From positions 310,001 to 374,000 of the forward strand of contig NZ_SJPW01000003.1 of assembly GCF_007860125.1 (NCBI RefSeq): 64,000 nt of DNA, read 5' to 3'. The notes under the pieces were generated by a model that did no database searches, was not told where the DNA came from, and saw nothing but the letters and a program-made list of their open reading frames with translations. A program made the translations under genes and the position numbers. This stretch comes from Rubripirellula tenax (GTDB lineage: Bacteria > Planctomycetota > Planctomycetia > Pirellulales > Pirellulaceae). Below, piece after piece: positions 17,120 to 54,089 of the stretch (positions are counted from its first letter, which is position 1; every line of letters starts with the position of its first letter).

Positions 17120-19522
17120 CTAGTTGCAGTTCGTGCAACCAGCGCCCGTTTCCATCACAGCACCTTCGCTGATGATGCCGTCGCTGTGTCCACCGTCGAT
17201 GATGGTTTCGCCCATCACCGAACCGCCGAAGTCATCAATGCTTCCGCCGTTAACCATCGGAGCAGCCGACATCGCCGGTGCACCGTAGTTGTAGACAGGA
17301 ACTTGAATCGTTTCGGCAACCGGACGGCAAACGCGAACGTTGACCGAACGAGTCGCTTGAACGGGAACACAAACGCTGTACGTTTCCGGAGTCTGCTCGG
17401 TCACGTTGTCGTAAACGGTGACGTTGTAGTTGCGGACGCGTTGCTCGGGAACACAAACGGTGAAGCTGACTTCGCGGCTACGCGATTGTGTTTCCATGCG
17501 AGTGCGATTGACGGTGCGAGTACGAGTCTCGGTCGTCATCGTCGTTTGCGGAACCATGCGAGTGCGGGTTTCCAATCGCGTGCGTTGGACCGGAACCATG
17601 CGAGTACGGGTTTCGGTGGTCATCGTTGTGACGGGAACCATGCGAGTACGTGTTTCGGTACGGCTCTTGGTCACTTGGAATTGACGCGTGCGAGTTTCTT
17701 GACGAACCCGTTGTACCGGAACCATGCGAGTGCGGGTTTCGGTGTTGAACTCGGTGTAAGGAACCGTACGAGTACGTGTTTCCGTGCGACAGCGAGAAAC
17801 GGGAACCATGCGGCTTCGCGTTTGAGTCGTCATCGTTACCACAGGAACTTCGCGAGTACGAGTTTCCATGCGAGTGCGAGTGACAGGCACTTGGCGGTCA
17901 CGAGTTTCGGTACGGTACTTCGTCACATTGTATTGACGCGAACGTTGTTCGGTACGGCAGCGAGTCACGGGAACCGATCGGCTACGAGTTTCAGTCGTGT
18001 ACTTGGTCACGTTAACGGTACGAGTACGAGTCTCGGTGCGGCAACGTGTGACGGGCACCATGCGAGTGCGTGTTTCGCATGTGTAGCTGGTCGTCGTGTA
18101 CGTATAGGGCTCTTGCGAGCACTGGGTTTGATACGTGGTGCAAGGAACTTGCTCGCAAACCAGGTTGGGAACGTAAACCTTGCGATAAACGATGGTTGGG
18201 CAGCATGCATCACCAACGACGCCACCGCCACAAGGATCGGCACAGGGATCCGCACAAGGATCAACACAGGCATCGTTGCAATGACCACAACCACAACCAC
18301 CGGTCAAACCGCTCAGCAATCCGCCCAGCAGACCACGACCGCGTGACAGGCACGACGATGCACCCGAACCGAAGGACGCCACAGGTGACGAAGCAACTTC
18401 CGTTGCCACGCACTTATAGCTTCCCATGTCACGAGTCACCGTCTTCATCGTCGTCACGGGAACGCTACGAGATACCGTTCGGTATGCCGTGTGCGTTTGC
18501 GTGACGGGAACTTGAATTTGATAGTTTTGGGCAACGTGTTCGGTGTAAGGAACGTTGACCGTGTAGTTCTGTTGGATCGCTTCGGTGTAAGGAACCGTAA
18601 CGGTGTACGGTTGTTCGATCGTTTCCGAGTAGGGAACTTGAACGTTGTAGACTTGCGTCGCAGTTTCCGTATAAGGAACTTGAACGCTGTACGTTTGAGT
18701 CAGCGTTTCCGTGTAAGGAACGCAAACTTGATAAGACTCCGTACGTGACGATGTTACGGGGACTTGAACGGTGTAGGTCTGTTCCACATGCTCTGTATAG
18801 GGAACGTTTACCGTGTACGTTTCTTCACGAGTACGTTGCACGGGAACTTGAACGGTGTAAGCCTGTTCGATTTGTTCCGTGTATGGAACGCTGACCGTGT
18901 AGTCTTGTGACTGTGTTTCGGTGTAAGGGACGCTAACCGTGTAAGTTTGCGCGACCTGATCGGTTCGCGGAACTTGAACGGTGTAGTTTTGAGTCACTTG
19001 TTCGGTGTAAGGAACCGAAACTTGGAAGGACTGTTCCACCTGAGTCGTCACCGGAACCTGAACGGTGTAAGGGACTTCTTCGGTGTAAGGAATCGCAACC
19101 TGAACGTTGTAGTTCTCGGTGCGGGTTTGCGTCGTCGGGACATTGACGGTGTAGGTTTGTTGGCGCGTTTCAACACGGGCAACTCGCTTCGTCACGCTTC
19201 GCATACGCGTGCGTGTTTCGCGCTGATGTGTCGTGTACGGGATTTCGCGAGTCTCCGTCACGTACTGGGATCGCATCACGGTGCGAGTTTCGTAAGTGAC
19301 CGATGGTCCACATGCGTCGCCCGCACCGAAACCTCCGACCGAACTGATAACCGATCCGCCCATGCCGGATCCGTCAACGACCATACCGGCACCGTCTGAT
19401 CCACCCAAACAAGCTCCGCCGCCACCAAGGCATGCCGAACATCCACAATCGTCGCCCAGAGCGACGCCAGACGTCGTGAGCGCGAGCGCTGACATCCATA
19501 CAAACTTAAAGACCCAATTCAC
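17120..19522 (-). CDS. Planctomycete YTV-repeat cell-wall protein 1
   Basis: I set the start at the GTG at 19522, preceded by AAGGA, giving 800 residues; the upstream ATG-initiated extension would place 27 charged residues before the signal peptide. A signal peptide (FVWMSALALTTSGVALG) leads to a Cys/Gly-rich head (DCGCSACLGGG). Then come about 14 units of a 14-residue repeat of the type YTVxVPYTExxxQx, rich in Glu and Thr. A Cys/Gly/Asp-rich linker follows (CGCGHCNDACVDPCADPC). Next are about 15 units of another 14-residue repeat of the type (R/T)TETRTRxVPVTxx, rich in Arg. The tail is GAGCTNCN. YTV-domain proteins were found in the cell wall of Rhodopirellula baltica and are confined to planctomycetes. 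The role is probably structural, with cysteines available for disulfide cross-links. A paralogue lies at 51549. Confidence 0.9.
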   Translation of the reverse strand: MNWVFKFVWMSALALTTSGVALGDDCGCSACLGGGGACLGGSDGAGMVVDGSGMGGSVISSVGGFGAGDACGPSVTYETRTVMRSQYVTETREIPYTTHQRETRTRMRSVTKRVARVETRQQTYTVNVPTTQTRTENYNVQVAIPYTEEVPYTVQVPVTTQVEQSFQVSVPYTEQVTQNYTVQVPRTDQVAQTYTVSVPYTETQSQDYTVSVPYTEQIEQAYTVQVPVQRTREETYTVNVPYTEHVEQTYTVQVPVTSSRTESYQVCVPYTETLTQTYSVQVPYTETATQVYNVQVPYSETIEQPYTVTVPYTEAIQQNYTVNVPYTEHVAQNYQIQVPVTQTHTAYRTVSRSVPVTTMKTVTRDMGSYKCVATEVASSPVASFGSGASSCLSRGRGLLGGLLSGLTGGCGCGHCNDACVDPCADPCADPCGGGVVGDACCPTIVYRKVYVPNLVCEQVPCTTYQTQCSQEPYTYTTTSYTCETRTRMVPVTRCRTETRTRTVNVTKYTTETRSRSVPVTRCRTEQRSRQYNVTKYRTETRDRQVPVTRTRMETRTREVPVVTMTTQTRSRMVPVSRCRTETRTRTVPYTEFNTETRTRMVPVQRVRQETRTRQFQVTKSRTETRTRMVPVTTMTTETRTRMVPVQRTRLETRTRMVPQTTMTTETRTRTVNRTRMETQSRSREVSFTVCVPEQRVRNYNVTVYDNVTEQTPETYSVCVPVQATRSVNVRVCRPVAETIQVPVYNYGAPAMSAAPMVNGGSIDDFGGSVMGETIIDGGHSDGIISEGAVMETGAGCTNCN

Positions 19523-19729
19523 AATCGATTTCCTTCTGACAGGCTTGAAACTTTGAGGCACACGGGCATGGCGACGAGGCATAAAACACTGCCCAACCAA
19601 CACACCTTCCCTACGTGTCTCAAACCTAAACCCGCCCCCCCGTAAAACAATCGATCACTGGACAAAACGTACCGTTTGGTTCATCACGTGTGACGATCGT
19701 AGGGGCAAAGCGATTTGGGCTAAGCAAAG

Positions 19730-19761
19730 AAAAAACGGCGACTCGATTGATGAGCCGCCGT
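19730..19761 (-). terminator. Orphan minus-strand intrinsic terminator
   Basis: Read on the minus strand: ACGGCGGCTC, a 7-base loop, GAGTCGCCGT (one mismatch), then TTTTTT. No intact gene precedes it on that strand before the repeats at 20.0-20.2 kb, so it probably marks a lost gene or an unrecognised RNA. Confidence 0.65.
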
Positions 19762-20025
19762 TGGCGGAAAGGTCGAAGGATGGTCGTGTCTGTTTTAACG
19801 ATTAACCGATCGATCGAGTTCGGTAGTATTGCTGTGGGACGGTATTGTAAGGCGATCTGAGCGTCGTCGTTTAGCGCGAGGTCGCGGGCTGAACCTCGCT
19901 GACCGGTGCAGGGTCCGCTTTGACCTTCGCCACGTTCCATCACTTGCCGTTTAAACTCGACCCAGAATGTCAATCGAGTCGGGTGCAGTCAGGCTGGTAG
20001 CAGTTGAGCGATGTGGATGAGTCCA

Positions 20026-20104
20026 GGTAGGGTGCGTGCTCGTCACGCACAAGACGCCACCCCTAAGCGAGCCGTAGCGGTGCGTGGCACGAACGCACCC
20101 TACC
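20026..20104. repeat. Imperfect palindromic repeat (MITE/REP-like)
   Basis: A left arm of about 25 bases starting GGTAGGGTGCGTGCT (20026) pairs imperfectly with a right arm ending GAACGCACCCTACC (20104) around a 29-base centre. Related arms occur at 25785-25850, and the centre plus right arm recur at 21905. It looks like a dispersed, non-coding palindromic element. Confidence 0.75.
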
Positions 20105-20156
20105 CGAACTCACTTGAAACCCGAAACCCGAGTCAGACCCCACGCGAAGCGTTTCC
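20044..20156 (+). repeat. 113-bp direct repeat, copy A
   Basis: Bases 20044-20156 are identical to 21905-22017 over 113 positions. The repeat contains the right part of the palindromic element and the adjoining sequence ending GCGAAGCGTTTCC. The two copies are in direct orientation and bracket the chemoreceptor-like gene. Confidence 0.95.
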
Positions 20157-20276
20157 CCTGCGACGCGACCAGTCCCTACCCGAGCCCAAACCAACCGCCA
20201 TCCATAACGAGTAAACTCAATGCAGACGGACCACTAGGCCCCTTTGATGGTTCCCTTTCATGGTTCGCTGCGGCGG

Positions 20277-21425
20277 CTACGCTTTGCCGATACTCTGCAT
20301 GATCAAGGAGTTCCAACCGGTGGTGTAGGTTTCGTAACCCGGAGCGTGCGCGAATCCGAGGCAGAAGGGTATTCCGTCGATCGAAATCGTGGAGAAGCGT
20401 TTGTGTTTCTTCACCAATTCCATCCACGAGGACGGCACCGATTCATTCATTGCTTGACCGCCTGAATCGGCGAGGACACGACCGGCTTCATCGACGATCA
20501 TCACGCGAGTGGTCTCTTTCTCGCCCTCGCGAAGCGGCGTGTTCTCGATCACCGATTGGGCCAACGCGTCCCAGTTAAAAATGATTCCCAGCACACCCAG
20601 GATGCTGCCGTCGACGCGACCACCCTGACGAACCGCTGCGGAATAAATCAGTGACGCTTCGTCATTGACCAGCGAGCTTTTATGTGCCGTTTCGAATGCA
20701 AAATCCTCGCCACTGCGCGTCGTCATGGCTCTGTCGAACCAGACCGCTCGCGATACATCTCGGTCAATCGATCGATACCGATCGGGACGACCGTTCGCGA
20801 TTACTTTCCCTTTGGTGTCTGCCAAAACCAAGTCCCAATAGACGGTGTAGGAGTTCAAGATCGTTCCTAGCCGTCCGCAGGCGTGTTCGGTCGCTGCAGC
20901 GGTCTTTTCCGAAAGTGCGTCGACGACACTCGAATCGGTCGCCCACCAACGCACATCGCAACTGCGCTCATACAGATTACGGTCAATCAGATCGATGTTC
21001 ACAAGCGCCATATCGCTGAGCCGGTTGCCGCGGACGCTGGTGCCAATCAAATCCAATAGCAACTGGATCGTTCGCTGCGTCCGACTGGCCATCTGGTTGG
21101 CAGCGTCGGTGGTATTGCTCGCCAGTTTTTGCATCTCAGCGGCAACGACGCCGAAAGCGGCTCCATAACTTCCCGCTCGCGCCGCTTCGATCCTCGCGTT
21201 GAGCGCCAAAAGTTTGGTTCGAGAGTTGATCTCGTTGATTTCATCGATTGCAGAATCCATCGTCAGATTCAGTTGCCGAACCAATCCCAATACGTCGTCA
21301 CTACCTCCATCGCCGACGGACATTTCATCGCTTTCGGCAAACGGACGGTCATGGGTTTGTTTGATGTTGTTGTTGGTTTTGAGTGAAGGACGCGGGGCGG
21401 GGCTGCTCAATTGAGTCGCGGACAT
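20277..21425 (-). CDS. Soluble chemoreceptor-like protein: MCP signalling segment followed by a Cache/PDC-like domain
   Basis: 382 residues from the ATG at 21425, which has GGAG about 10 bases upstream. Near residues 45-100 is a short but clear methyl-accepting chemotaxis signalling tip: [20 protein letters not shown] and [20 protein letters not shown]. The rest (about 120-380) resembles a Cache/PDC sensor, with [48 protein letters not shown] and [21 protein letters not shown]. There is no signal peptide or transmembrane helix. The order (signalling part first, sensor last) is the reverse of classical receptors. It may sense a small molecule in the cytoplasm and signal to a CheA array. It lies between two identical 113-bp direct repeats. 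Confidence 0.82.
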
Positions 21426-21691
21426 TCTAGAGGGTCTCCATGCGCGTATTGACGCGTCCGCGCTCGCGAATCGCATCAATCGCTGGATGGTTGGGGCATT
21501 GGGGCATTCACGACCGGTTGATTCCGCCCAAAAACGGGTCGCGCACATCCCAAACGATCGGCAATGTTCTCTCGGATCACGAAACGGAATGCGAAAACGC
21601 GGCGATGCGGAGTGAGTTTGCGTCGAACCCCACGGTTCTGAGGCATCGCACGATCGCAGCGATTGTCCCGGTCGCCCTGCAAGCAAAGGGG

Positions 21692-21761
21692 CCCGTCCCA
21701 AATGCCGCGTGGTTAAGCCGTAAATCACTACATAAGGTTCCGCGCCAGCTTTGCTATCGGG
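21692..21761 (+). repeat. 70-bp dispersed repeat, copy 1
   Basis: A 70-base unit beginning CCCGTCCCAAATGCCGCG and ending GCTTTGCTATCGGG also occurs at 25465-25534 with only a few differences. Both copies adjoin ATAATGGGACGGGGG-type palindromes. It resembles the non-coding ends moved by REP/IS200-like systems; no transposase is visible. Confidence 0.85.
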
Positions 21762-21833
21762 CGAAGATAATGGGACGGGGGTAATATGTGACAAACTTGC
21801 TTAAAACTACCTCCATCCCATTATCTTCGCCCG
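21758..21833. repeat. REP-like inverted repeat
   Basis: CGGGCGAAGATAATGGGA (21758-21775) is perfectly inverted at 21816-21833. The inner sides, GGGGGTA and TACCTCC, partly extend the pairing. The loop is about 25 bases. The same GGGACGGGGGTA arm recurs at 25432. Confidence 0.85.
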
Positions 21834-21904
21834 GACACCTTTTCGGCATCCGTCATCTTTGATCGTCGCCATCTAAATTACCTCCGTCCCATTTGATCCC
21901 TCCG

Positions 21905-22017
21905 CACGCACAAGACGCCACCCCTAAGCGAGCCGTAGCGGTGCGTGGCACGAACGCACCCTACCCGAACTCACTTGAAACCCGAAACCCGAGTCAGACC
22001 CCACGCGAAGCGTTTCC
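21905..22017 (+). repeat. 113-bp direct repeat, copy B
   Basis: Identical to 20044-20156. This copy lacks the left arm of the palindromic element; it instead follows REP-like sequence and runs straight into the truncated beta-helix gene. Confidence 0.95.
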
Positions 22018-22056
22018 TCCCGAAACCCGAGTCAGACCCCACGCGAAGCGTTTCCT
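21981..22056 (+). repeat. 38-bp tandem duplication at the gene breakpoint
   Basis: The 38-base unit beginning CCCGAAACCCGAGTCAGA occurs twice in perfect tandem (21981-22018 and 22019-22056). The first copy is the end of the 113-bp repeat. The beta-helix coding sequence starts immediately after the second copy. Confidence 0.93.
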
Positions 22057-22057
22057 C

Positions 22058-24742
22058 CTGGATGTCGTTGCCGATGATGGCGTCGTTAGCCTTCGTGAAG
22101 CAATCGAATCCGCAAATGGCTTAGCTGGCACCGACACGATCACGTTTGCGCCAACGATCGACGGCCAACCTATCCAATTGTCCGCAGAGCTCGGGCAGCT
22201 TTCGATCACTGACTCGGTAGGCATTTCAGGCAATGGATCAACCCAGACGATCGTCGACGCGAACCAACAGTCACGGGTCTTGAGCATCGAAGGGGATGCG
22301 ATCGACGTGAACTTGTCGGGGTTAGCGGTCACTGGCGGCAAAACGACGGGAAGCAATGAGTGGAATGTGCAACCGATAGACGATCACGGTGGCGGTGGGA
22401 TTCGTTTTTTATCCAGTGGCACACTCACCGCTACTGATAGCGTCTTGTCAGCGAACAGCACTTCGGGCGAACTCGCGGCAGGCGGCGGGATCTTTACGTC
22501 GACTGGTAACGTCACGTTGATTCGCAGCACATTGTCGAACAACCGCACAACTGGAGGTTTCGCGTATGGCGGCGGCGTGCGTTCGGAATTTGGCGTCGTC
22601 ACGCTGATAGATAGCACTGTGTCTGATAACCACACGACGGGCATTGCATCAGATGGTGGTGGGATCTCGGCGGGGGGAGGGAATGTGACATTGACAGGCA
22701 GCACGGTGTCAAGCAACAGCACCGCAGGTGAGAATGCGAAAGGTGCTGGGATCCAAGCCTATCAAGGCGATGTGACAGTGACGGAAAGCACGATATCAAA
22801 TAACGTCACCGAGGGCTTTTTGGGGAAAGGCGGCGGCATCTTTGCACATTCCGGTAAAGTGACGCTGACGGACAGTATACTGTCAGGCAACCGCACGGCC
22901 GGACCTGCGGCGGGTCAAGGCGGCGGGATCTACTTAGGGATGGGCTCTGGCAGCGCGACGCTTCTAAACAGCACGTTGTCGGGCAACAGTACAAGCGGCG
23001 CTGATTCGTGGGGCGGCGGAATCTATTCGTTCGGCAGCAGTGTGACGCTGACGGGCAGCACATTGTCGGGGAATCGAACGACGGGCAACGGTTCAAGTGG
23101 CGGCGGGATCGCTTCGTATGGCAAAGTGACGCTATTCGGCAGCACCTTGTCAAACAATCGAGCGGATGGAACAGACTCGGACGGTGGCGGGCTGTGGTTC
23201 GGTCCAACGTCAGTATCGATCATGGGCAGCACCGTCACCGGAAATACTGCTTCCGGGACTGGCGGAGGTCTAGCGACACCCGAGGATGTGTATGACCGGA
23301 ATCTGAAAATCCATAATTCGATCATCGCGGGCAACACCGCGCGGATCAACTCCGACTTGGAATTGCCGATCACGCCAGAGTCCCCGTTTGATTTGAAGTC
23401 AAGCATCATCGGTGACAATGAAGGCACGAGTCTCACGGCCTCGGAAACCGCCGACGCCAACGGTAATCTGATCGGAACGCCCGCGGCACTGATCGATCCA
23501 CTGCTTGGTCCTTTGCAAGACAACGGCGGTCTGACGTTGACGCACGACCTGCTGCCGAACAGTCCGGCGATCGATGCAGGAGACAACGGGTTGCTAGCCG
23601 GGCAAATGCATGACCAACGTGGTGCTGCGTTCACTCGGACGTTCAATGTTAGAGCCGACATCGGTGCTGTCGAATATGTGGACCCGTCGATTGTCACCCT
23701 GCCGAATGCCACGTCCTCGATCGCCATCGAATCGGGCGACATCGTGGTCCGATCTGCCGATCAGGTTGTCTTTCAGTCGGCAATCGAGACGCTAACACGA
23801 CTGCGAACCGTCGGCACCCCTGGGGACGACACGATCGAACTGAAGACGGCGCATCTTTCCGATACAGCCGTTCTGGAGGTCAGCGGCGGGCCTGGCGAGA
23901 ACACACTTTTGGTCGACGTCGCGTCGCTTGACCTGACGAAACAAGAATCTCTATCGGTCGAGAACTTCTCGCGAATCGATTTGCGAGACGACCGACCAAA
24001 CGTGCTGACACTCGATGCCCGAGCAGTCTCTACTATGTCGCCCGTCGATAAGGCGATCACCATCCTAGGCGATTTGGGAATCGATCAGTTCGTGTTCTCG
24101 GATGTTGCAAACTGGCGAATGGATGCACCGGAGAATTTCGATGGACAGGATATGCAAGTGACCGTCAACCAGATCACGGGCGAGAGGGTGCGGAGCAACA
24201 CGTCATCGGGCTGGCACAACTTATTGGTGCCTTCCGACATCAATAACAGCGGTGATGTGACGGCAAGCGATGCTTTGCTGATCATCAACGAACTCGGCCG
24301 CAGAGCCTATTCGATCGCAACATCAGGCGTGTTAAACAGCCCCGTTACTGACGCCCCATTCCCAGGCAACTTCTACGACCAAAACAGTGACGGTAGCGTT
24401 ACCTCGGTTGATGCACTACGCGTAATCAACCAACTATCCAGGATGAACTCCCGCGATGATGTACCGGGCGAAGTTCAGCAGTCGACGGACACGTTCAATC
24501 AAATTGTCGTGGAGCCGCCGCTAGGGTCAGACTTCGTCTTGCGGAGAGAACCTCTCGAGTCCTATTCACTCAGTTTGCTGCCATGGCAATCTCAAGTTTC
24601 TTCTTCGCAGTCAACTTCCACATTGGCCATAGGGGAATCAGAAACTGTTCCCGCGCAGTCCGAATCGCCTGAAAGTTCGGCCGAGCGAATCGACCAGTGG
24701 CTCACTGAAATGGCCGTGGCGACGAAGATCAGCGAAACCTAG
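22058..24742 (+). pseudogene. Beta-helix/dockerin-type secreted protein, 5' end lost
   Basis: From about 22058 the frame encodes LDVVADDGVVSLREAIESAN, the usual opening of planctomycete parallel beta-helix domains. Many repeats of the form GSTLSGNxTxGxGGGI follow, ending with the typical DQRGAAFTRTFNVRADIGAVEY. The C-terminus has a dockerin type I pair: DINNSGDVTASDALLIINEL and DQNSDGSVTSVDALRVINQL, whose Asp/Asn loops bind calcium. Upstream, where a signal peptide should be, the frame reads only through the 113-bp and 38-bp repeats to a TTG at 21893. There is no ATG and no secretion signal. The intact gene would encode an exported adhesin or carbohydrate-binding protein; this copy is probably non-functional or not exported. 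The coding part itself is free of frameshifts, so the loss looks recent. Confidence 0.8.
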
Positions 24743-24803
24743 TCTTAACGGGTATCGAAATTGATCGCCGGTCGGCAAACGCAACGATTCGGCACGGTTT
24801 CAA

Positions 24804-25400
24804 TCAATTTCGCCCTCCGACGTCGGTTTCTCGAGCGTCGGAATATTTCGGATTGGCGGTGGGGAATTGCGCTCCCACCGTTTTTTGCCATTGGTGCAAC
24901 TTGGTTTGCAGTTGCCCGGCTTTTTCGGGCTGCGATGCCGCCAGGTCATGTTGCTCGCTAATGTCTTTGGCGAGGTTGTACAGTTCGACGCGTTTGTCTT
25001 CGTGGAATTCAATCAGCCGAAACTCGCCCGAGCGGATCACGCTGTAGGGGCCGTCACCGCCCGCATGATAATGTGGGTAGTGCCAAAACAGGTCTCGATC
25101 GATCTTGGCCGTCTGTGTCCGCAGCAACGTGACCAGACTTGTGCCATCCGACGCCGCGTTAGAGTCCGACTGGACACCGGCCATTTCTTGAAACGTGGAA
25201 AACAAATCCATCGTGATGATCGGAGTATCACAGACGGTGCCGGGAGTGGTGACGCCTGGCCAATGGACGATCGCTGGTTCCCGCAGGCCGCCCTCGTAAG
25301 CGGATCCCTTGCCGCGTCGCAAAGGGGGGTTTTTGGTGAAGCCAGTTGCCTTACCGTACCGTTGGGCTAGGCCGCCGTTGTCGCTGTAGAACACGATCAC
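24804..25400 (-). pseudogene. Sulfatase, C-terminal fragment
   Basis: 198 residues that begin inside a sulfatase core: VIVFYSDNGG carries the Asp-Asn metal-binding pair found about 300 residues into intact sulfatases. Next come KGSAYEGGLREPAIVHWPG and the C-terminal subdomain (ELYNLAKDISEQHDLAASQPE). The catalytic Cys motif and the whole N-terminal two-thirds are missing. The break is exactly where REP-like sequence starts (about 25404). No sulfatase N-terminus is present elsewhere in the window. It converges with the truncated beta-helix gene. Confidence 0.88.
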
Positions 25401-25406
25401 CGGAGA

Positions 25407-25472
25407 AGAATAATGGGACGAGGAGAATAATGGGACGGGGGTAGTGTTCGGTGTCTTTATTACCCCCGTCCC
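25407..25472. repeat. REP-like tandem and inverted repeat
   Basis: AGAATAATGGGACG occurs at 25407 and 25424. GGGACGGGGGTA (25432-25443) is perfectly inverted at 25461-25472. The array abuts the broken end of the sulfatase. Confidence 0.85.
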
Positions 25473-25534
25473 GAATGCCGCGTGGTTAAGCCGTAAATCA
25501 CTACATGCGGTTCCCGGCCAGCTTTGCTATCGGG
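25465..25534 (+). repeat. 70-bp dispersed repeat, copy 2
   Basis: The same unit as 21692-21761, in the same orientation and with the same length of 70 bases. The differences cluster at the middle dinucleotides around ACTACAT..GGTTCC, which leaves the flanks intact. Confidence 0.85.
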
Positions 25535-43612: not shown

Positions 43613-43632
43613 ATCGTTCGTCTACCAGCCAG

Positions 43633-46600: not shown

Positions 46601-46668
46601 GACACCAGAGCCAAAACGGCGGCAGAGAGGCGAGGCAAGTATTTCATTCCGAGCACTGGAGCTTTCAT
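43633..46668 (-). CDS. Zinc-dependent metalloprotease (DUF5117/DUF4953 type), secreted
   Basis: I chose the ATG at 46668 (MKAPVLGMKYLPRLSAAVL), giving 1011 residues; the ATG at 46647 is an alternative, and the longer open frame to 46998 is unlikely. A signal peptide ends near TSARAAD. The N-terminal domain (about 30-200) matches DUF5117, with FNVWKRDKDSQLIGELPKNF. Then comes KAGVDYWNKAFEKVGI. The zinc motif HEVGHTLGLRHNF, of the HExxHxxGxxH type, lies near residue 590. About 75 residues just before it (roughly 498-572) are almost only Asp, Glu, Lys and Ala. The C-terminal domain contains SVMDYTPINY with the Met-turn-like 'SVMDY'. The protein is probably periplasmic or external. Confidence 0.88.
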   Translation of the reverse strand: MKAPVLGMKYLPRLSAAVLALVSFAAATSARAADLPSFDKVSEGYEQVEVSDQQATKGLFNVWKRDKDSQLIGELPKNFAGKNYFIALTVSSGDLYAGLQSGDWVVQWRRYDDRLALIAPNLRTRATGDAESKASVKRLFTDTVMLDVPILAMGPNGGPVIDMDALLIGHATKFFGPSVRVSNPRINELKSAKVFPENVEIAFDIVNGGRNIDGSGKLQTIHYSFSEVPSTSGGYKPRDADERVGYFTTTYSDLSQYKDDDTQVRYINRWHLEKRDSKLSLSPPKEPIRFYVEHTAPVRYRRWIKAGVDYWNKAFEKVGIVDAIVIEYQDAQSGVHMEKDPEDVRYNFIRWLNNNIGTAIGPSRVHPETGEILDADIVLTDGWIRHFNFNYEDLMPKLAMEGFSAETLSWLGTHPTWDPRVRMAPAEQANFRRAEYARQAQQPMGGFAMAGADPALLGDDEYDGLFGSVSQKNGLCMAASGRSLDLAFARMDWGLTLMADEEAAKKKKKDDEDKADKDGEKADASKKDGDAEEDDAEEADKDDDLDDEDADDKDAKKVGDKDADDEKKEDEHLLDGMPEWFVGPLLADLVAHEVGHTLGLRHNFKASSLYTLDEINSEALKGKKTIASSVMDYTPINYRYDSGNAQGDYAMIDIGPYDFWAIEYGYTFKDKELPKILSRCTEPELQYATDEDTTGPDPLARRYDFAKDPLAYANEQMKLVKLYRERILDKFVKEGDTWGKARRGYELTLGLQTKASSMMANWVGGAFVYRDKKGDPGDRPPVEVVPADQQRAALKFVIDSAFFDEAYGLTPKLLERMSVDKWIDGGFHSSMSSEATWPIHDRILGVQASALTWLMNPTTLRRVYDNELRLPEDEDALTLPELLATINAAVWGELKKECPEGRNDRKPMISSLRRNLQREHMQRLLDLVLESSDDTAAYKPISNLARMELRTLTEDIDASLEKCGDKMDAYTKAHLSETKERIDRALEAGYTYNAASAQQPMMMFMLGKEAK

Positions 46669-47052
46669 AGGGAGAGGAGGGGTGGGCGGAACCGTTTCGC
46701 CGAAGTCCCCCGGATCATCGGGCCCCCGAACGATTGGGCCCCGGTTTATTCGGCAAAGTTTGCCAAATCCGAACCGATTAATCTTACACCAAGGCGTCAA
46801 ACCCCGGCGAGTTGCTTTCGCCGGTGACGAATAAAACGATTCTGGCCGGTGATGAATGCGACGACATTGACGGTTTTCGCTGTGAGGCCGACAATCTTCG
46901 GCACGCCAACCCACTGGATGGTTCCTGTTGGACGCCCTTGCGTCGGCCCTCGAATCCGCCAGCACATGCCTTGGGCCAGGCAACCAAAAACCGTCCATTC
47001 GCCCACCTATTCCTCATTTCCACCCAGTTTCATGATCCAAGAGACTCGTCAA
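46669..47052. other. Divergent intergenic region between the metalloprotease and glyA genes
   Basis: About 380 bases. A small perfect inverted repeat GGCAAA-G-TTTGCC lies at 46752-46764 and could be a regulator site. I see no riboswitch structure that I can name and no supportable small gene; the glyA frame is open upstream of 47032 but lacks a ribosome binding site. Confidence 0.4.
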
Positions 47053-48318
47053 ATGAATCCGCTGGCCCAACAAGACTCCGCCGTTTGGGCGGCGATCGAA
47101 GCCGAAGCCGTCCGCCAGCAGGAAGGCCTCGAGATGATCGCGAGTGAAAATTACACCAGCGTGGCGATCATGCAGGCCGCCAGCAGCGTGCTAACCAACA
47201 AGTACGCCGAAGGCTATCCCGGCAAACGATATTACGGCGGATGCGAGCACGTTGACGTGGTCGAAACGATCGCGATCGACCGAGCCAAGGAATTGTTCGG
47301 CGCCGAAGCCGCCAACGTCCAGCCGCACGCCGGCTCTCAGGCCAACACAGCCGTTTACTTGTCGTGCTTGGAGGTCGGTGACACCGTCCTGGGCTTGGAT
47401 TTGGCTCAAGGTGGACACTTGACCCACGGGATGAAGTTGAACATCAGCGGTCGGCTGTACAACTTCATCAACTACGGCGTCGATAAAGAACACCATCGGC
47501 TGGACTTTGACCAAATCGCCAAGATGGCTCGCGAGCACAAGCCGAAACTGATCGTGGCGGGTGCCAGCGCGTACCCTCGCGAGATCCCTCACGACAAGTT
47601 TGCCGAGATCGCAAACGAAGTCGGTGCGAAGCTGATGGTCGACATGGCGCACTATGCCGGATTGGTTGCCGCCGGCATCCACAACAGCCCCGTGCCCTAC
47701 GCCGACTACGTCACCACGACGACGCACAAGACGCTGCGTGGACCGCGCAGCGGCTTGATCCTTTGCAAGGAAGAGCACTTGAAGCTGGTCAACCGCAATG
47801 TGTTCCCCGGCACACAAGGCGGTCCGCTGATGCACATGGTTGCCGCGAAAGCGATTTGCTTTGGCGAAGCACTTCGTCCCGATTATAAGGCGTACGGCCA
47901 AGCGGTCGTGGACAACGCCAAGACCCTTGCCGAGACTTTGATGACCGCCGGATTGCGATTGGTCAGCGGTGGCACCGACAACCACTTGATGTTGGTGGAC
48001 GTGACGGCCGTGGGTCTGGGTGGCAAGAAAGCCGAAGAGGCGCTCGACCAGTGCGGCATCACGGTCAACATGAACATGATCCCGTTTGACCAGCGGCGTC
48101 CGGCCGATCCATCGGGCATTCGTATCGGCACGCCGGCGCTGACGACTCGCGGTATGGGCACCGCAGAAATGAAACGCGTCGGCAGTTGGATCGCGAAAGC
48201 CTTGTCGAACCCCGACGACGCCTCGCTGCTGGAAAGCATCCGTGGCGACATCAAAGAAATGTGTGAACAGTTCCCCGTACCGGCCGGCCGCGATGCGGTG
48301 ATGGTGCCTGCGAGCTAA
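47053..48318 (+). CDS. glyA: Serine hydroxymethyltransferase
   Basis: 421 residues from the ATG at 47053 ([19 protein letters not shown]), the usual GlyA length; an ATG seven codons upstream at 47032 is possible. GlyA interconverts serine and glycine with transfer of a one-carbon unit to tetrahydrofolate. Conserved blocks are [56 protein letters not shown] and [17 protein letters not shown], where the lysine (near 227) binds pyridoxal phosphate. It is not visibly cotranscribed with its neighbours. Confidence 0.97.
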
Positions 48319-48336
48319 CGGAAAACTCGATGGGCT

Positions 48337-48406
48337 CCCGCGACGCCGCTCGCGGGTTTCACGTTTCCACTGCCATGCAGTTGGATCCCGCGAGCGGCGT
48401 CGCGGG
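48337..48406. repeat. Perfect 20-bp GC-rich inverted repeat after glyA
   Basis: CCCGCGACGCCGCTCGCGGG (48337-48356) is perfectly inverted at 48387-48406, with 30 bases between. Each arm is also internally part-palindromic (CCCGCGA...CGCGGG). There is no T-run. It lies between glyA and the response regulator gene and could end or stabilise the glyA message. Confidence 0.7.
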
Positions 48407-48422
48407 TGCACGAAGGGTAACC

Positions 48423-48854
48423 ATGAATCGAATTCTGATCGCCGACGACAACGACGCCAACCGCGAACTGCTGGAGGCCTACCTCGTCGGCGTCGATTGC
48501 GAACTCGAAACCGCCGTTGACGGCCAGGACACGCTCGACAAAGTCGCATCGTTCAAGCCCGACCTAGTGCTGCTTGACGTGATGATGCCGAAGTTGAGCG
48601 GGTTCGAAGTCTGCAAACGGCTGAAGGACTCGCCCGAGTTCCGCCGAGTGATGGTGCTGATGGTGACGGCGCTGAACGAGTTGGGCGATCACGAACGGGC
48701 CGTTGCAGCAGGCACGGATGATTTCTTGAGCAAGCCTGTCAACAAGATTGAACTGTTAAAACGGGTCGAAATCATGCTGAAGCTCAAGGGCACTGAAGAC
48801 GAACTCGAGCGGCTGCGGCAATACATTCAAGAAATGGAAGAGCAACGCAAGTAA
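48423..48854 (+). CDS. Single-domain response regulator with a coiled-coil tail
   Basis: 143 residues from the ATG at 48423. It is a receiver domain: ILIADDND with the acidic pair (residues 8-9), LVLLDVMMPKLSG with the phospho-acceptor Asp52, the Thr of VTAL near 82 and Lys104 in FLSKPVN. After the receiver, residues 118-143 (LKGTEDELERLRQYIQEMEEQRK) form a short coiled coil, which suggests dimerisation or partner binding. It has no output domain. It converges with the PAS-GAF-receiver gene, 10 bases away. Confidence 0.93.
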   Translation: MNRILIADDNDANRELLEAYLVGVDCELETAVDGQDTLDKVASFKPDLVLLDVMMPKLSGFEVCKRLKDSPEFRRVMVLMVTALNELGDHERAVAAGTDDFLSKPVNKIELLKRVEIMLKLKGTEDELERLRQYIQEMEEQRK

Positions 48855-48864
48855 CATACGAAGA

Positions 48865-50625
48865 CTACTCGTTTGTCGGAGCTGCCGATTCTGATTCCGC
48901 CGCACCGCCGACTTCCAACCTTGTCTTGATCACGTCGATCAACTGATCCAGTCGGAACGGTTTCGAAAGCACACATTTCGGTGGCAGCCCGGCCTGGCGG
49001 GCCTTCACAATCGAGTGCCCAGGGTCGTATCCAAACCCGGTCATCAAGACCATCGGCACATGCTCCATCAGATCGCCAAGTCGTAACATCAACTGATACC
49101 CGCTGTAATCGGGCAATCGAATGTCGCTGATGATGACGTCGTAACGTCCCGCGGCGCCGCTGTTGCGGACCATCCAAACCGCTTCGTCGCCCTTGTGAGC
49201 GGTTTCGACAACACAGCCGTAACGTTCAAGCAAACGGTGGGCGTCCTCTCGCACGGGTTCGTCGGCATCGACGACCAAAATTCGCTTGCCGCGAAGTCCC
49301 GCGTGTTGAGACGATTCAATGCCGACGGGAACGGCTTCCAACGGTGTCATCTTTTGACCGACCTGCTGGATCGTGTGCTTGATATCTCGCGCGTTTTGAA
49401 GGATCCGCTGCAACCTTTCAACGACTTCGGGGCTGTGCCCGATGTAGTCTTCCATCACGTTGACGGCGTCGTTCAAAATTTCGTCAACGGGCATCGCAAC
49501 GGCGCTGTGAATTGCATCACAACTCTGTTGGGCCGTGTTGGCCTTCTGCGCGACCAACAATTCCAACGTGTTCAGCGCGAAGGCCACGTCGCGTGCGAAG
49601 ATTTCCAAAAACTGCAGATCGCTATCGCCGAAAGCGTTTGATTCAGGACTCTCGACGTTGATCGTACCAAGCACTTGATCGTGTAGGATCAGCGGCGCCG
49701 TGATCGAACTTCGTGACGTCACGACGCCGGGAATAAACAGCGGATCGTTCTCAACATCCTGACACACATACGGCGAACCACTCGCCGCGACGTATCCCGT
49801 GACCCCGTTACCGTGTGGATGCGCAAACAACTGCCGATCGGCTGCGTCCTGGTCGATACCGACGCTTAGCAGCGGCACCAGGTTACCCGTCGCGTGTTCG
49901 AGTAAGCGAATTTCAATGACTTCGAAATTCAATAAGTCACTCAGATAGTGACGGATATTTTCTTTGAGCAATTCGATTCGCTCGTCAACTTCCATCATGA
50001 AGATTTCGGTCGGACGAAGATCCGCCAGCTCGCGGCCCGCCTTGTGGATCGCCTCCAGTTTCTGCTGCTGCAAAATTTCTTCGGTGATGTCACTGACGGT
50101 GACAATCAATTGCCGCGAATGACTCGGTTGGACCAGCGGTGCCGCGTGAACTTGAAAGTACCGGTTCTGGTCCGTGTGCAGGGTGCTGTTGCTTTCTTCG
50201 CCGGTTGCCAGCGCCGTGTGGAATGGACAGAAGTCCGGCCCCATGATTTCCGGATTGGACAACAACTCGTAGAAATTCATGCCTGTGATGTCAGTGTCTT
50301 TCCGACCGGCCCACTCGATCAACCGGCGGTTCCCCCACAGCAGGCGAATGTCGGAATCAAGCAGCGCGACCCCCTCGGGCATGTCCCGCAACATCAAGCC
50401 ACTTTGTGCGATCCCCCGCAACTCGCTTAACTGGGGCAACTGATCGCGAGCGATCCAAACGCCATCCACGTTCGCTTCGCTGAGCTCGTCGACGACGGCA
50501 ACGGACGTATCGACGACAATGATGGAGTCCGGATCGATATCGCCAGGCAAAGTCCGCGGATCGCCCACGCAAATGTATTTGCGAGGGTTAGCATTTGCCT
50601 GCGTCGCCTGTGGCGATCGGTTCAT
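48865..50625 (-). CDS. PAS-GAF-receiver signalling protein without a kinase domain
   Basis: 586 residues from the ATG at 50625, which has GGGAG upstream; a longer frame to 50718 exists. The N-terminal part (about 10-70) looks like a degenerate receiver-like region. A PAS domain follows (MPEGVALLDSDIRLLWGNRRLIEWAGRKDTDITGMNFYELL). A helical linker leads to a GAF domain (about 215-365, LLPLLSVGI-type and APLILHDQVLGTINVESPESNAFGDSDLQFLEIFARDVAFAL). A helical region (about 370-440) occupies the place of a DHp domain but has no clear H-box, and no HATPase is present. The C-terminus is a receiver (KRILVVDADEPVREDAHRLLERYG; IISDIRLPDYSG; LSKPF). It may be a phosphorelay intermediate or an altered histidine kinase. 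Confidence 0.85.
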   Translation of the reverse strand: MNRSPQATQANANPRKYICVGDPRTLPGDIDPDSIIVVDTSVAVVDELSEANVDGVWIARDQLPQLSELRGIAQSGLMLRDMPEGVALLDSDIRLLWGNRRLIEWAGRKDTDITGMNFYELLSNPEIMGPDFCPFHTALATGEESNSTLHTDQNRYFQVHAAPLVQPSHSRQLIVTVSDITEEILQQQKLEAIHKAGRELADLRPTEIFMMEVDERIELLKENIRHYLSDLLNFEVIEIRLLEHATGNLVPLLSVGIDQDAADRQLFAHPHGNGVTGYVAASGSPYVCQDVENDPLFIPGVVTSRSSITAPLILHDQVLGTINVESPESNAFGDSDLQFLEIFARDVAFALNTLELLVAQKANTAQQSCDAIHSAVAMPVDEILNDAVNVMEDYIGHSPEVVERLQRILQNARDIKHTIQQVGQKMTPLEAVPVGIESSQHAGLRGKRILVVDADEPVREDAHRLLERYGCVVETAHKGDEAVWMVRNSGAAGRYDVIISDIRLPDYSGYQLMLRLGDLMEHVPMVLMTGFGYDPGHSIVKARQAGLPPKCVLSKPFRLDQLIDVIKTRLEVGGAAESESAAPTNE

Positions 50626-51548
50626 CGGTCCACTCCCGCTATCGCGTGGTCGCGAAGCATGTGTAAACGCATCGGTTTCATTTCTTAGCATCATAGGACG
50701 AAAGCAGATTCCTGTCACAGCTTCTCACCCGACAATCCGAAATGAATGACCAATTTCGAACCCGAAACAGAAGCGATGCTTTCGACCCTTATCAGCATCG
50801 GCAAACCAACGAGCCTAACTCGACTGTCCATCGTTTCGTCGATGCAACCGGCGAATTTTCAATAGCACGAAAGCACCTGAGACGACGCCGCGAACATCTC
50901 GGAACGAAGCACTGCCCTTAGCCGACCAATAAGGAAAAATACCAACCAGTAAACCGCATCGACCGCCAACATCAGTCATTCGGATTCGATGGCTTATCCG
51001 TGACCGCGAATCATTCCAAGATGGGCTGACACTGCCGAACACGGATTCTGCGATGCCGCTGGAGGCTGGATCCTTCACCTTCATGGAATGTCCGGTAAAA
51101 TCAAACGGCCCCACGCACCGGTATCCCTCTGTTACGTCCCAAATCGCTGGAAGACCTCGTGTTCAATAGCTGCTCTCCCGCTGGGCAACGGGTCGCGCAC
51201 CCGCCTCGCGAAGACTTTTGGACCTCACTCGTCACCGATCGCAGACTGGCTTTGGCAGCCCGCACGCCGAACGAGAATCCGGGTAAAAGCCTTCGGATCA
51301 CAATGAATTGCAGTCATCTGACCCGTCGGATCGCACGCACAAAACAACTGCACCCGTTACCCAAAATCGCGGCTAACAATTTGCCATTTTTCAGAAATAC
51401 CATTTCTGTGCTTGTTGACTTTAGGTGTACAGGCTTTACCATGAGCAGTCGCTAGCCTTAATCGCCTAGCTTACGCAGCCGTTAAAACTTCCTCGTATTT
51501 CTTCTGTGGCCTCACGTGCTGTGAGATGTTTCCGGAGGGTTCCCCAAG
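50626..51548. other. Long upstream region of YTV gene 2
   Basis: About 920 bases without a supportable gene. Minus-strand and plus-strand open frames of about 100 codons occur (50815-51114, 51159-51455) but have no ribosome binding site or family resemblance. The last 160 bases hold a palindrome and promoter-like boxes for the YTV gene. Confidence 0.5.
51392..51442 (+). promoter_or_regulatory. Candidate promoter and operator of YTV gene 2
   Basis: A perfect palindrome CAGAAAT-ACC-ATTTCTG (51392-51408) lies 6 bases upstream of TTGACT (51415-51420). TACCAT (51437-51442) follows after 16 bases. The leader to the ATG at 51549 would be about 100 bases. The palindrome is well placed for an activator or repressor. 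Confidence 0.5.
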
Positions 51549-54089
51549 ATGAGAGCACAAGTGTTAAAAACCGTTTTCGGGCTCGTTGCAGCGTTGTTGT
51601 TCGCTGTTAATGCCCAAGCAGGATGTGGCGAATGTGGAGGCTGCGAAAGTGGCTCTGGTTGTGTCACAAGTGGCGGCGTCGCCATGGGTAGTGGCGGCGG
51701 CAGCGTCGTCTACAGCAGCGGCGATGCCGGTGCATATGGTATCGGAAGCGGCGCCTCAGGCGGAGCTTGTGGTCCCAGCGTTTCGTACGAAACGCGAACT
51801 GTCATGCAGTCGCAGTATGTGACCGAAACCCAAATGGTTCCGACCACATCGTATCAGCAGCAAACGCAAACGCGTATGCGAAACGTGACCCGCCGCGTGG
51901 CCAAGGTCCAAACCCGTCAACAAACTTACACGGTCAACGTGCCGCAAACCCAAACTCGTACGGAATCGTACAACGTTCAGGTCTGCGTCCCTTACACCGA
52001 AGAAGTGCCTTACACCGTACAAGTTCCGGTAACGACCCAGGTCGAAGAGTCGTACCAAGTTTCGGTCCCTTACACCGAAACCGTCGAACAAACCTACCAA
52101 GTGTCGGTTCCAAAGACGGAAGAGCGTACTGAAACCTACACCGTTTCAGTTCCTTACACCGAACAAGAAGCCTACACCGTTACGGTTCCTTACACCGAGC
52201 AAGTCGAACAGAGCTACCAAGTTCAAGTTCCTGTTCAAAAGACTCGTGAAGAAACTTACCAAGTTAGCGTTCCCTACACCGAGCAAGTCGAACAGACTTA
52301 CCAAGTGACGGTACCGGTAACCTCGACTCGCACCGAGTCGTATCAAGTTTCGGTTCCTTACACCGAGCAAATCGAGCAAACTTACACGGTCCAAGTACCG
52401 GTCACCTCGACCCGCACCGAATCGTACCAAGTCTCGGTTCCTTACACCGAAACGTCGACCCAAAGCTACACGGTTCAGGTTCCTTACCAAGAAACCAAGA
52501 CCCAAACTTACATGGTCAACGTTCCTTACACCGAGACCCTCGAGCAACCGTACAGCGTGACGGTTCCTTACACCGAGCAAGTCGCTCAAAACTACACCGT
52601 CCAAGTTCCTTACACCGAACAAGTCGCACAAAACTACACCGTGCGAGTTCCGGTTCAAGAAACCAAGACTGCGTATCGCACCGAAACCAAGTGTGTTCCG
52701 GTTACTTCGATGCGAACCGTAACGAAGGACCTTGGCAGCTACCAGTGCCAAGCCGTTGTTAGCGGCGGCGGAGCGTCCTATGGCGGCGGTGTCGTCGGCG
52801 GATCGATGGGCGGCGTTGTTGGCTCGGGAAGCGGAAACGGCTGCGGTTGTTGCTGCTGTGTTTCGACCTGCAACAGCGGTTGCGACGACGGCTGCGGCGG
52901 TTCGGGCATGAGCTCGGGCGGCGGCATGGGTGCTGGCGCTGCTTGTGGCCCAACGGTTTCTTACCGTCAAGTCTATGTGCCCAACATGGTCACCGAGCAA
53001 GTTCCAACGACGACCTACCAACGTCAATCGCAACAAGTTCCTTACTCGTACACAACGACCAGCTACACCACGCAGACTCAAACCCGCATGGTTCCTGTCC
53101 AACGTTGCCGTACCGAAACGCGTACTCGCATGGTCAACGTGACCAAGTACCGTACCGAACAACGCAGTCGCACTGTTCAAGTACAAAAGTCGCGTCAGGA
53201 ACAGCGTACGCGTGACTATGTTGTCACCAACTACCGCACCGAAACCAAGACTCGCGAAGTTCCTGTTACTCGCACTCGCTTGGAAACTCGCACCCGCGAA
53301 GTTCCTGTGACCACGATGAGCACCGAAAATCGCACTCGCATGGTATCGGTTCAAAAGACTCGCCTGGAAACTCGCACCCGCGAAGTTCCTGTGACCACGA
53401 TGTCGACCGAAACTCGGTCACGTATGGTTCCGGTTACCCGTACTCGCGTCGAAGATCGCACTCGTACGGTCAACTACACCGAGATGTCGACCGAAACTCG
53501 TACTCGCATGGTTTCGCAACAACGTACTCGTCAAGAGCAACGTAGCCGCGACGTCACCAAGTACCGCAGCGAAGAACGTACGCGTACGGTTCCTTACACC
53601 ACCATGGTTAGCGAAACCCGTACCCGCAGCGTTCCTGTGACGAAGACTCGCTTGGAAACACGCACTCGCATGGTTCCCAAGACGACCTACACGACGGAAA
53701 CCCGCACCAACACGGTCACCAAGCAACGCATGGAAACGCAACAGCGTTCACGCGAAGTTGCCTACACCGTCAACGTGCCACAAACCCGTACCCGTAACTA
53801 CAACGTGACTGTTTATGAAAACATCACCGAACAAGTTCCGGAAACCTACTCGGTTTGTGTCCCGGTCCAGTCGATGAAGGCTGTTCAAGTTCGTAAGTGC
53901 GTTTCGGTTCCGACCACTGTAACCGTTCCGGTTTACAACTCGGCACCTGCAATGAGCACTGGCGTCATGATGGACAGCAGCAGCTACGGCAGCGGCGAAG
54001 TCATCATGGACGGCGGCAGCTACGGCGGCGAAGTCATGACGGAATCGGCTCCGATGGCAACAGGTGCTGGTTGCACCAACTGCCAGTAG
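51549..54089 (+). CDS. Planctomycete YTV-repeat cell-wall protein 2
   Basis: 846 residues; the ATG is preceded by GGAGGG. Signal peptide at about 1-24 (VFGLVAALLFAVNAQA). A Cys/Gly head follows (GCGECGGCESGSGC). About 16 units of the 14-residue Glu/Thr-rich repeat come next, such as YQVSVPYTEQVEQT. One unit (YTVSVPYTEQEA) is two residues short. A Gly/Cys linker (GCGCCCCVSTCNSGCDDGCGG) leads to about 15 units of the 14-residue Arg-rich repeat, such as RLETRTREVPVTTM. The end is GAGCTNCQ, as in paralogue 1. The protein probably forms part of the proteinaceous cell wall and may be disulfide-linked. A strong terminator follows, so it is a single-gene unit. Confidence 0.92.
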   Translation: MRAQVLKTVFGLVAALLFAVNAQAGCGECGGCESGSGCVTSGGVAMGSGGGSVVYSSGDAGAYGIGSGASGGACGPSVSYETRTVMQSQYVTETQMVPTTSYQQQTQTRMRNVTRRVAKVQTRQQTYTVNVPQTQTRTESYNVQVCVPYTEEVPYTVQVPVTTQVEESYQVSVPYTETVEQTYQVSVPKTEERTETYTVSVPYTEQEAYTVTVPYTEQVEQSYQVQVPVQKTREETYQVSVPYTEQVEQTYQVTVPVTSTRTESYQVSVPYTEQIEQTYTVQVPVTSTRTESYQVSVPYTETSTQSYTVQVPYQETKTQTYMVNVPYTETLEQPYSVTVPYTEQVAQNYTVQVPYTEQVAQNYTVRVPVQETKTAYRTETKCVPVTSMRTVTKDLGSYQCQAVVSGGGASYGGGVVGGSMGGVVGSGSGNGCGCCCCVSTCNSGCDDGCGGSGMSSGGGMGAGAACGPTVSYRQVYVPNMVTEQVPTTTYQRQSQQVPYSYTTTSYTTQTQTRMVPVQRCRTETRTRMVNVTKYRTEQRSRTVQVQKSRQEQRTRDYVVTNYRTETKTREVPVTRTRLETRTREVPVTTMSTENRTRMVSVQKTRLETRTREVPVTTMSTETRSRMVPVTRTRVEDRTRTVNYTEMSTETRTRMVSQQRTRQEQRSRDVTKYRSEERTRTVPYTTMVSETRTRSVPVTKTRLETRTRMVPKTTYTTETRTNTVTKQRMETQQRSREVAYTVNVPQTRTRNYNVTVYENITEQVPETYSVCVPVQSMKAVQVRKCVSVPTTVTVPVYNSAPAMSTGVMMDSSSYGSGEVIMDGGSYGGEVMTESAPMATGAGCTNCQ

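What the first reader, a model, noticed from the sequence alone, without database searches (positions are those of the whole stretch)
17120..54089. YTV proteins: acidic and basic halves share one 14-residue repeat register, with cysteine clusters at the ends and middle
Seen directly: both paralogues (17120-19522 minus, 51549-54089 plus) are built as Cys head, about 14-16 units of YxVxVPYTExxxQx (Glu-rich), Cys/Gly linker, about 15 units of xTETRTRxVPVTxx (Arg-rich), and the tail GAGCTNC. Both unit types are 14 residues long, so the two halves could stack or zip with each other, within a chain or between chains, by charge. The cysteines at both ends and in the linker could lock the assembly. 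Known: YTV proteins occur in the cell wall of Rhodopirellula. Inference: a self-complementary, disulfide-locked wall fibre.
Basis: partly seen in the sequence, partly recalled or inferred. Interest (0 to 1): 0.78.

Follow-up and report, generated by a model that had tools for sequence, protein, structure and literature searches.

The report
Giant hairpin-shaped wall proteins
Two bacterial wall proteins look like single chains folded once into a hairpin about 100 nanometres long, because in most relatives measured the two arms have kept matching lengths and charges while changing size.

Summary
The A half is only weakly acidic; the B half is clearly basic.

Measured between conserved junctions, B minus A arm length is +2 in 55 and +1 in 2 of 57 measurable 14-unit homologues, over 27 lengths from 147 to 397. 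Units gained or lost in A are matched in B near the mirror-image position. Charge complementarity peaks at one antiparallel register, the one AlphaFold gives at low confidence.

Best reading: each chain is one giant antiparallel beta-hairpin, arms of 292-294 and 318-320 residues, roughly 100 nm if extended, with Cys-rich segments at both tips. Held-out 14-unit proteins agree in 25 of 27; 16-unit proteins chosen for varied length in only 6 of 12. No Cys faces a Cys across the arms, so the disulfide bonding known for such walls is more likely between molecules; that is inference. Pairing within one chain or between copies is undecided.

The parts
17123..17293 (-). P0001 C-terminal tail, residues 744-800, ending GAGCTNCN, 2 Cys
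17294..18175 (-). P0001 B arm, residues 450-743 (Arg-rich), paired with the A arm by the rule i+j=819
   Evidence: register carried over from the family; AlphaFold was not run on P0001
18176..18415 (-). P0001 Cys/Gly loop between the arms, residues 370-449
18416..19291 (-). P0001 A arm, residues 78-369 (Tyr/Val/Glu/Gln units)
19292..19522 (-). P0001 N-terminal hydrophobic leader (by eye) and Cys/Gly head, residues 1-77; start codon uncertain
51549..51788 (+). P0002 leader (by eye) and Cys/Gly head, residues 1-80
51789..52742 (+). P0002 A arm, residues 81-398, ends at the anchor aromatic Tyr398 of GSY
52743..52973 (+). P0002 Cys/Gly loop between the arms, residues 399-475
52974..53933 (+). P0002 B arm, residues 476-795, starts at the anchor aromatic Tyr476 of VYVP; paired with the A arm by the rule i+j=874
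53934..54086 (+). P0002 C-terminal tail, residues 796-846, ending GAGCTNCQ

Best explanation
Each YTV protein of the window is, most likely, a secreted wall protein whose two repeat arrays are the two arms of one very long antiparallel beta-hairpin. The A arm runs out, the Cys/Gly segment turns, and the B arm runs back, pairing residue for residue (P0002: residue i faces 874-i; P0001: 819-i). Because the units have an even number of residues, one face of the ribbon is rich in Thr/Ser/Gln/Pro (with most arm cysteines) along its length, and the other carries Tyr, Val and nearly all the charges, with Glu of one arm next to Arg/Lys of the other. Head and tail meet at one tip and the loop forms the other, so Cys-rich knobs sit at both ends. 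Shown by sequence statistics: constant arm-length difference, mirrored compensated changes, complementary charges, face alternation. Predicted at low confidence: the hairpin fold. Inferred: that pairing is within one chain, that ribbons of about 100 nm join by disulfides at tips and Thr faces, and that this makes the insoluble wall.
For: (1) Arm lengths between conserved junctions: B-A = +2 in 55 and +1 in 2 of 57 measurable 14-unit proteins, A 147-397; 27 distinct lengths, SD of A 52.2, SD of the difference 0.19; so at least 26 length changes were matched, some of only 2 residues. (2) Arms are not recent copies: own A-B identity at the best ungapped shift is at most 0.31, while A-A means between proteins of one length class are 0.33-0.97; at least one junction profile from 14-unit proteins hits the same junction in 25 of 33 16-unit proteins, both in 7. 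(3) Mirrored indels in 21 disjoint pairs: mean mirror offset 6.2% of the arm, parallel 31%; 0 of 20000 permutations as good; example L076/L066. (4) Charge: of 91 shifts in each orientation the antiparallel position 2 residues from the AlphaFold register has the best net score (789:46; 16-unit 413:34); best attract:repel ratio 16.8 against 3.2 parallel (14-unit) and 20.4 against 6.5 (16-unit). Own arms beat swapped arms of equal length in 38 of 42, 2 ties, 2 worse; P0001 21:0, P0002 24:0. (5) AlphaFold: the L106 class gives two strands of 218 residues, i+j=523; P0002 gives i+j=736 (model numbering) for three strand pairs; both put the same two junction aromatics opposite each other. (6) Held-out: 15 of 16 and 10 of 11 measured 14-unit proteins at +2. 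(7) In 15 held-out proteins that mix 14- and 16-residue units, 108 of 122 B prolines lie where A predicts.
Against: AlphaFold confidence is low (mean pLDDT 58.7 and 51.4, pTM 0.19 and 0.22); the middle of P0002 is unresolved and partly slipped to i+j=762-764. Unequal arms: L039, L153 and L183, L191, L208, L214, L215, L218, L224, L225; all ten are in draft assemblies of 60-820 contigs, so repeat collapse is possible but unproven, and many equal ones are drafts too. The 16-unit held-out set was equal in only 6 of 12. 16 of 106 proteins could not be anchored. Of the 21 indel pairs 3 lie nearer the parallel reading and 1 is far from both. In the 16-unit class the best parallel net charge score (8.5 per 100) is not far below the antiparallel one (10.1). 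In the mixed-unit test a parallel alignment free to choose among 121 shifts does almost as well (100 of 122). The pairing could be between two copies of the protein.
Confidence: 0.78

Rival explanations
1. The same antiparallel residue-for-residue pairing forms between two copies of one protein (A arm of one with B arm of the next), giving a swapped dimer or an endless ribbon.
For: Length, indel and charge evidence does not tell one chain from two. Paralogues of the window's genome have different arm lengths (291/293, 317/319, 219/221, and 204/193 in the 16-unit scale), so the partner is at least the same gene product.
Against: The two paired ends are joined by a loop of only about 20-140 residues in the same chain (anchor distances), and single-chain AlphaFold models close the hairpin.
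Confidence: 0.15
2. Each half folds on its own (for example a beta-solenoid with one 14- or 16-residue coil per unit), and the halves are alike only because one arose from the other.
For: Repeats of 12-16 residues are typical of two-sided beta-solenoids (recalled). Both halves of P0002 begin with a similar cap (by eye).
Against: Does not explain matched length changes, including 2-residue ones, near mirrored positions, or own-arm charge matching. Thr/Ser keep one parity along whole arms (3094:488 and 3163:492), unlike a coil with corners.
Confidence: 0.03
3. The arms pair in parallel.
For: Equal lengths and the mixed-unit proline test fit a parallel pairing almost as well.
Against: Indels match at mirrored, not parallel, places (permutation: mirror 0 of 20000, parallel p=1.0); charge matching is better antiparallel, clearly so in the 14-unit class.
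Confidence: 0.02
4. The arms are flexible, weakly ordered polyampholytes that stick by charge without a fixed register.
For: Low pLDDT, repetitive sequence.
Against: Register-specific charge matching that fades one unit away, and a constant arm-length difference.
Confidence: 0.02

Closest known systems
YTV proteins (Pfam PF07639) of planctomycete cell walls
   Same: Both window proteins are members by profile. YTV proteins are reported as major constituents of SDS-boiled walls of Gemmata obscuriglobus (PMC5287468, passage) and as the two top-scoring proteins of a wall preparation of Tuwongella immobilis, found only in its SDS-solubilised fraction (PMC8567305, passages).
   Different: The Pfam model has 43 positions, about three units. 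The passages seen describe Cys-rich proteins with YTV motifs; none describes two matched arms. PF07639 stands in a table of trRosetta models of repeat families without template (score 0.59; PMC8078820, passages), with no description in the passages seen.
Long beta-hairpins of pore-forming proteins (lysenin, aerolysin) and a phage phi29 collar/tail chain
   Same: They fill the top of Foldseek's PDB list for both models; best E-value 4.5e-4 (6qz9, phi29, for P0002).
   Different: No usable match: TM-scores of the 50 rows listed per search are at most 0.16 (0.04/0.08 for 6qz9); no PDB relative by sequence (0 hits); their hairpins are far shorter (recalled).
Beta-solenoid repeat proteins
   Same: Short repeats of 12-16 residues, often rich in Thr (recalled).
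   Different: No mirrored pairing of two arrays is expected; strict parity and compensated 2-residue changes argue against coils.
Compensatory change in RNA helices
   Same: A change in one arm is matched in the facing arm (analogy, recalled).
   Different: Here in a protein, by indels and charges.

Membership tests
YTV (PF07639) | Match to the Pfam profile above its cut-off | tested here: met
   118.2 and 154.9 bits against a cut-off of 21
YTV (PF07639) | Confined to one class of Planctomycetota | tested here: met
   40 of 392 phylum genomes positive at E 1e-5, all 40 listed as own family, order or class; 0 of 14 control genomes. Only 20 of the 352 negatives are listed; other phyla were not searched beyond the controls.
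YTV (PF07639) | Found in the SDS-insoluble wall | not testable with these tools
   Literature for relatives only
YTV (PF07639) | Secreted, with signal peptide | not tested
   Hydrophobic leader seen by eye; no predictor was run
Giant antiparallel beta-hairpin (proposed) | Arms of matched length | tested here: met
   P0001 291/293, P0002 317/319; family rule +2 in 55 and +1 in 2 of 57; exceptions
Giant antiparallel beta-hairpin (proposed) | Predicted pairing i+j constant | tested here: inconclusive
   Met in most of both models, but pLDDT 51-59 and a slip in P0002
Beta-solenoid | Coils independent of a second array; parity breaks at corners | tested here: not met
Disulfide-locked assembly | Reducing agent dissolves the wall | not testable with these tools
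   PMC3035269 passage: SDS-resistant envelope protein rich in Pro and Cys, stabilised by disulfide bonds

The most novel reading that the evidence does not exclude
YTV proteins are a new class of fibrous protein: single-chain two-stranded beta-ribbons about 50-130 nm long whose two arms evolve in lockstep, a protein counterpart of a long RNA helix; joined by disulfides at Cys-rich tips and Thr faces, these ribbons form the load-bearing protein wall of planctomycetes.
Probability: 0.5. Interest if true: 0.92.

Novelty: new variant of a known kind. Interest (0 to 1): 0.82.

Why it matters
Planctomycete walls have been described as proteinaceous since the 1980s (as cited in PMC3422733), and a YTV protein is in the planctomycete-restricted group of essential genes of Planctopirus limnophila (PMC10632474, passage), yet no PDB chain matched this family by sequence. 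The matched-arm rule gives a concrete fold, a residue-by-residue contact map (i+j=874, i+j=819) and a length per protein, all directly testable. It also poses an evolutionary question: how two distant parts of one gene gain and lose facing units together, with few unmatched intermediates.

Tried and rejected
Bulk charge complementarity: net charges of the arms do not balance, and correlate only at -0.40 over 57 14-unit proteins (-0.06 over 21 16-unit ones), so I replaced the idea by pairwise complementarity. Cross-arm disulfides: 0 facing Cys-Cys pairs at shift 0 in both classes, but zeros also occur at other shifts in the 14-unit class, so this is only suggestive. Composition-based arm boundaries and first regex anchors mis-split many proteins and were replaced by profile anchors. 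In one search the 16-unit class gave -11 in 11, -35 in 10 and +86 in 1 of 22; after moving the end anchor 24 residues for the second group and re-anchoring L044 by hand, 21 of 22 are -11; those 21 hold only 5 distinct lengths. L228 gave 95/189 from anchors of 14.7 and 8.7 bits and is treated as mis-anchored. The mixed-unit barcode was first noted as proof of antiparallel order; the parallel control removed that claim. Foldseek on low-confidence models gave nothing usable. Literature searches showed no listing or passage that describes a hairpin or paired arms in these proteins; only open-licence papers are held, and Hieu 2008 and Mahajan 2020 were not read (one look-up failed).

Full report
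What is there. The window lies in an 8.0 Mb genome of 42 contigs; its YTV-bearing relatives are Planctomycetota. Window 17120-19522 minus (P0001, 800 aa) and 51549-54089 plus (P0002, 846 aa) are YTV proteins by Pfam. The same genome holds further YTV genes: L022 (14-residue units), L021 and L023 (16-residue units), a fragmentary region L024, and one YTV-like stretch inside a 3091-aa protein. Autocorrelation confirms 14- and 28-residue periods in both halves; the A half is close to neutral, the B half strongly basic. Eight nearby ORFs were scanned with Pfam: RlmN-like radical SAM, chemotaxis receptor, beta-helix/dockerin, response regulator, S1/P1 nuclease, sulfatase, tail-specific protease, and one without a hit; none suggests a wall operon.

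Survey. Relatives came from named genomes (73 loci) and from a phylum-wide profile search (40 of 392 genomes positive; 29 loci used). Three loci without a YTV-like ORF (L024, L114, L120) were dropped. Of the remaining 106 proteins, window included, 90 could be anchored at the two junctions beside the loop, 61 of 14-residue and 29 of 16-residue type; 16 could not (L023, L025, L040, L049, L051, L077, L081, L090, L093, L099, L101, L107, L123, L124, L125, L127). Arm ends were then set by profiles of the start of A and the end of B (built, applied; one A junction, L082, was set by hand). Both ends were found in 57 of 61 and 22 of 29. In all 79 the best repeat lag is the same in both arms: 57 at 14/14, 22 at 16/16.

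Matched arms. In the 57 14-unit proteins B minus A is +2 in 55 and +1 in 2 (L059 and L063, which have an extra Gly at the junction), while A ranges from 147 to 397 with 27 distinct values; r=0.99999, SD of the difference 0.19 residue. The constant itself depends only on where the profiles end. Length classes only 2 residues apart (147/149, 163/165, 191/193, 217/219/221, 315/317) keep the rule, so even 2-residue changes are matched. Twenty-seven states need at least 26 changes on any tree. Recent duplication cannot explain this: a protein's own arms share at most 31% identity at the best ungapped shift, whereas A arms of one length class share 33-97% on average between proteins. Junction profiles from 14-unit proteins recognise at least one of the same places in 25 of 33 16-unit proteins and both in 7 (for example L021, 26.4 and 32.2 bits), so the two-arm layout is probably older than the change in unit length.

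Orientation. For pairs of 14-unit proteins whose arms differ by up to 60 residues I placed a single gap in each arm and measured its distance from the loop. In 21 disjoint pairs with at least 50% identity the A and B gaps lie near mirror positions (mean offset 6.2% of arm length; parallel reading 31%; 0 of 20000 permutations as good; Pearson 0.79). Three pairs lie nearer the parallel reading (L056/L058, L086/L126, L095/L121) and one far from both (L063/L067). Over all 343 pairs at 50% identity or more, which are not independent, the mirror reading is closer in 291. The clearest case, L076 against L066 at 91% identity, differs by one 14-residue unit 187 residues from the loop in A and one 185 residues from it in B.

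Charges. At the AlphaFold register 336 facing pairs attract and 46 repel in 58 14-unit proteins; at the adjacent diagonal position 792 and 46; one unit away 483:245 and 404:310. In a scan of 91 shifts in each orientation the antiparallel register has the best net score in both classes (5.15 against 3.36 parallel per 100 pairs; 16-unit 10.1 against 8.5). Attraction exceeds repulsion in 57 of 57 and 21 of 21 proteins (L039 left out), including three in which A is the positive and B the negative arm (L092 29:1, L112 21:3, L116 19:2). Own arms pair better than swapped arms of equal length in 38 of 42, with 2 ties and 2 worse (Wilcoxon 9e-8, not corrected for relatedness). P0001 has 21 attracting and 0 repelling pairs, P0002 24 and 0.

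Faces and cysteines. Thr and Ser keep to one side along whole arms (3094:488 in A, 3163:492 in B), and so do most arm cysteines of the 14-unit class (200:21, 415:48; 16-unit 210:121, 260:133). Of five proteins tabulated, four (P0001, P0002, L106, L041) carry nearly all charges and most Tyr/Val on the other side; L027 is blurred. No Cys faces a Cys at the predicted register. Cysteines therefore look placed for bonds between ribbons or at tips rather than across the hairpin; this is inference.

Structure. AlphaFold on a 13-member alignment of one length class gave two unbroken strands of 218 residues, E16-233 and E290-507, i+j=523, mean pLDDT 58.7, pTM 0.19. On P0002 (residues 70-800 with 26 relatives) it gave E10-108/E628-726, E212-325/E411-524 and E328-336/E400-408, all i+j=736, with an unresolved and slipped middle; mean pLDDT 51.4, pTM 0.22. 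In both, the aromatic of the GSY junction lies opposite the aromatic of V[WY]VP. P0001 and 16-unit proteins were not modelled. At 0.33 nm per residue (recalled) the arms here would be 96 and 105 nm long. No PDB relative by sequence; no usable one by fold.

Held-out tests with the profiles frozen. New loci not within 97% identity of the earlier set: 14-unit 15 of 16 measured are +2 (1 more unmeasured), the exception L153 carrying an exact 28-residue tandem duplication in A; 16-unit 19 of 24 are -11, 4 within 2 residues, L183 at -25 (2 unmeasured). That set varies little in length (A = 204 in 21 of the 24), so it is a weak test for 16-unit proteins. A second set chosen for varied length: 14-unit 10 of 11 at +2 over A 137-345, exception L191 (4 unmeasured); 16-unit only 6 of 12 at -11 (5 unmeasured), with L208, L214, L215, L218, L224 and L225 unequal, three of them by whole 16-residue units. 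All ten exceptions, L039 included, lie in drafts of 60-820 contigs (contig counts), but many equal ones do too. In single-contig assemblies L210 and L236, L237, L238, L240 are -11, and L241 and L243 are -35 as in the second 16-unit group; most others of the set could not be measured. So the rule is strict in 14-unit proteins and uncertain for Cys-rich 16-unit proteins outside the window's family. Proteins of those families that mix 14- and 16-residue units have matching unit order in the two arms: 81 of 83 B prolines in the exploratory set (9 proteins) and 108 of 122 in 15 held-out proteins (of 20 fetched) lie at the position set by A with one fixed shift; the best free parallel shift gives 100 of 122, so this shows matched order, not direction.

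Literature. Seen as passages only: PMC8567305, PMC5287468, PMC10632474, PMC3422733, PMC8078820, PMC2754498, PMC3035269. They support a wall location, SDS resistance, disulfides, and essentiality of a YTV protein in P. limnophila. None of the passages describes paired arms.

Verdict. The best explanation is a giant antiparallel beta-hairpin; pairing of the arms is well supported, the fold is a low-confidence prediction, and assembly and disulfide locking are inference.

Noticed in passing
L025:5919-15194 minus (C5 of the window's genome): A 3091-aa ORF carries one YTV-like stretch that reads by eye as a miniature hairpin: an A-like strand, a short DGK turn and a B-like EQRTRM strand.
   Followed up: no
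L024:2322-3143 minus: Short overlapping ORFs with YTV-like pieces in different frames, possibly a broken YTV gene.
   Followed up: partly
L087, L092, L123: YTV proteins that by eye have a 28-residue composite unit in both arms; in L092 the charge polarity of the arms is reversed.
   Followed up: partly
L153 residues about 160-220 of its ORF: Exact 28-residue tandem duplication in the A arm only: a possible unmatched intermediate or an assembly artefact.
   Followed up: partly
L227 (single-contig genome): A YTV protein with about three near-identical super-repeats of mixed 14- and 16-residue units in each arm (by eye); its C-terminus reads like a frameshift.
   Followed up: partly
window 21981-22058: A perfect 38-base tandem repeat (2.1 copies) near the start of the ORF 21893-24742 (beta-helix/dockerin protein).
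   Followed up: no
window 5139-5200 and 5881-5951: Runs of 6- to 18-base ATGGGA-type repeats inside the ORF 4624-6264.
   Followed up: no
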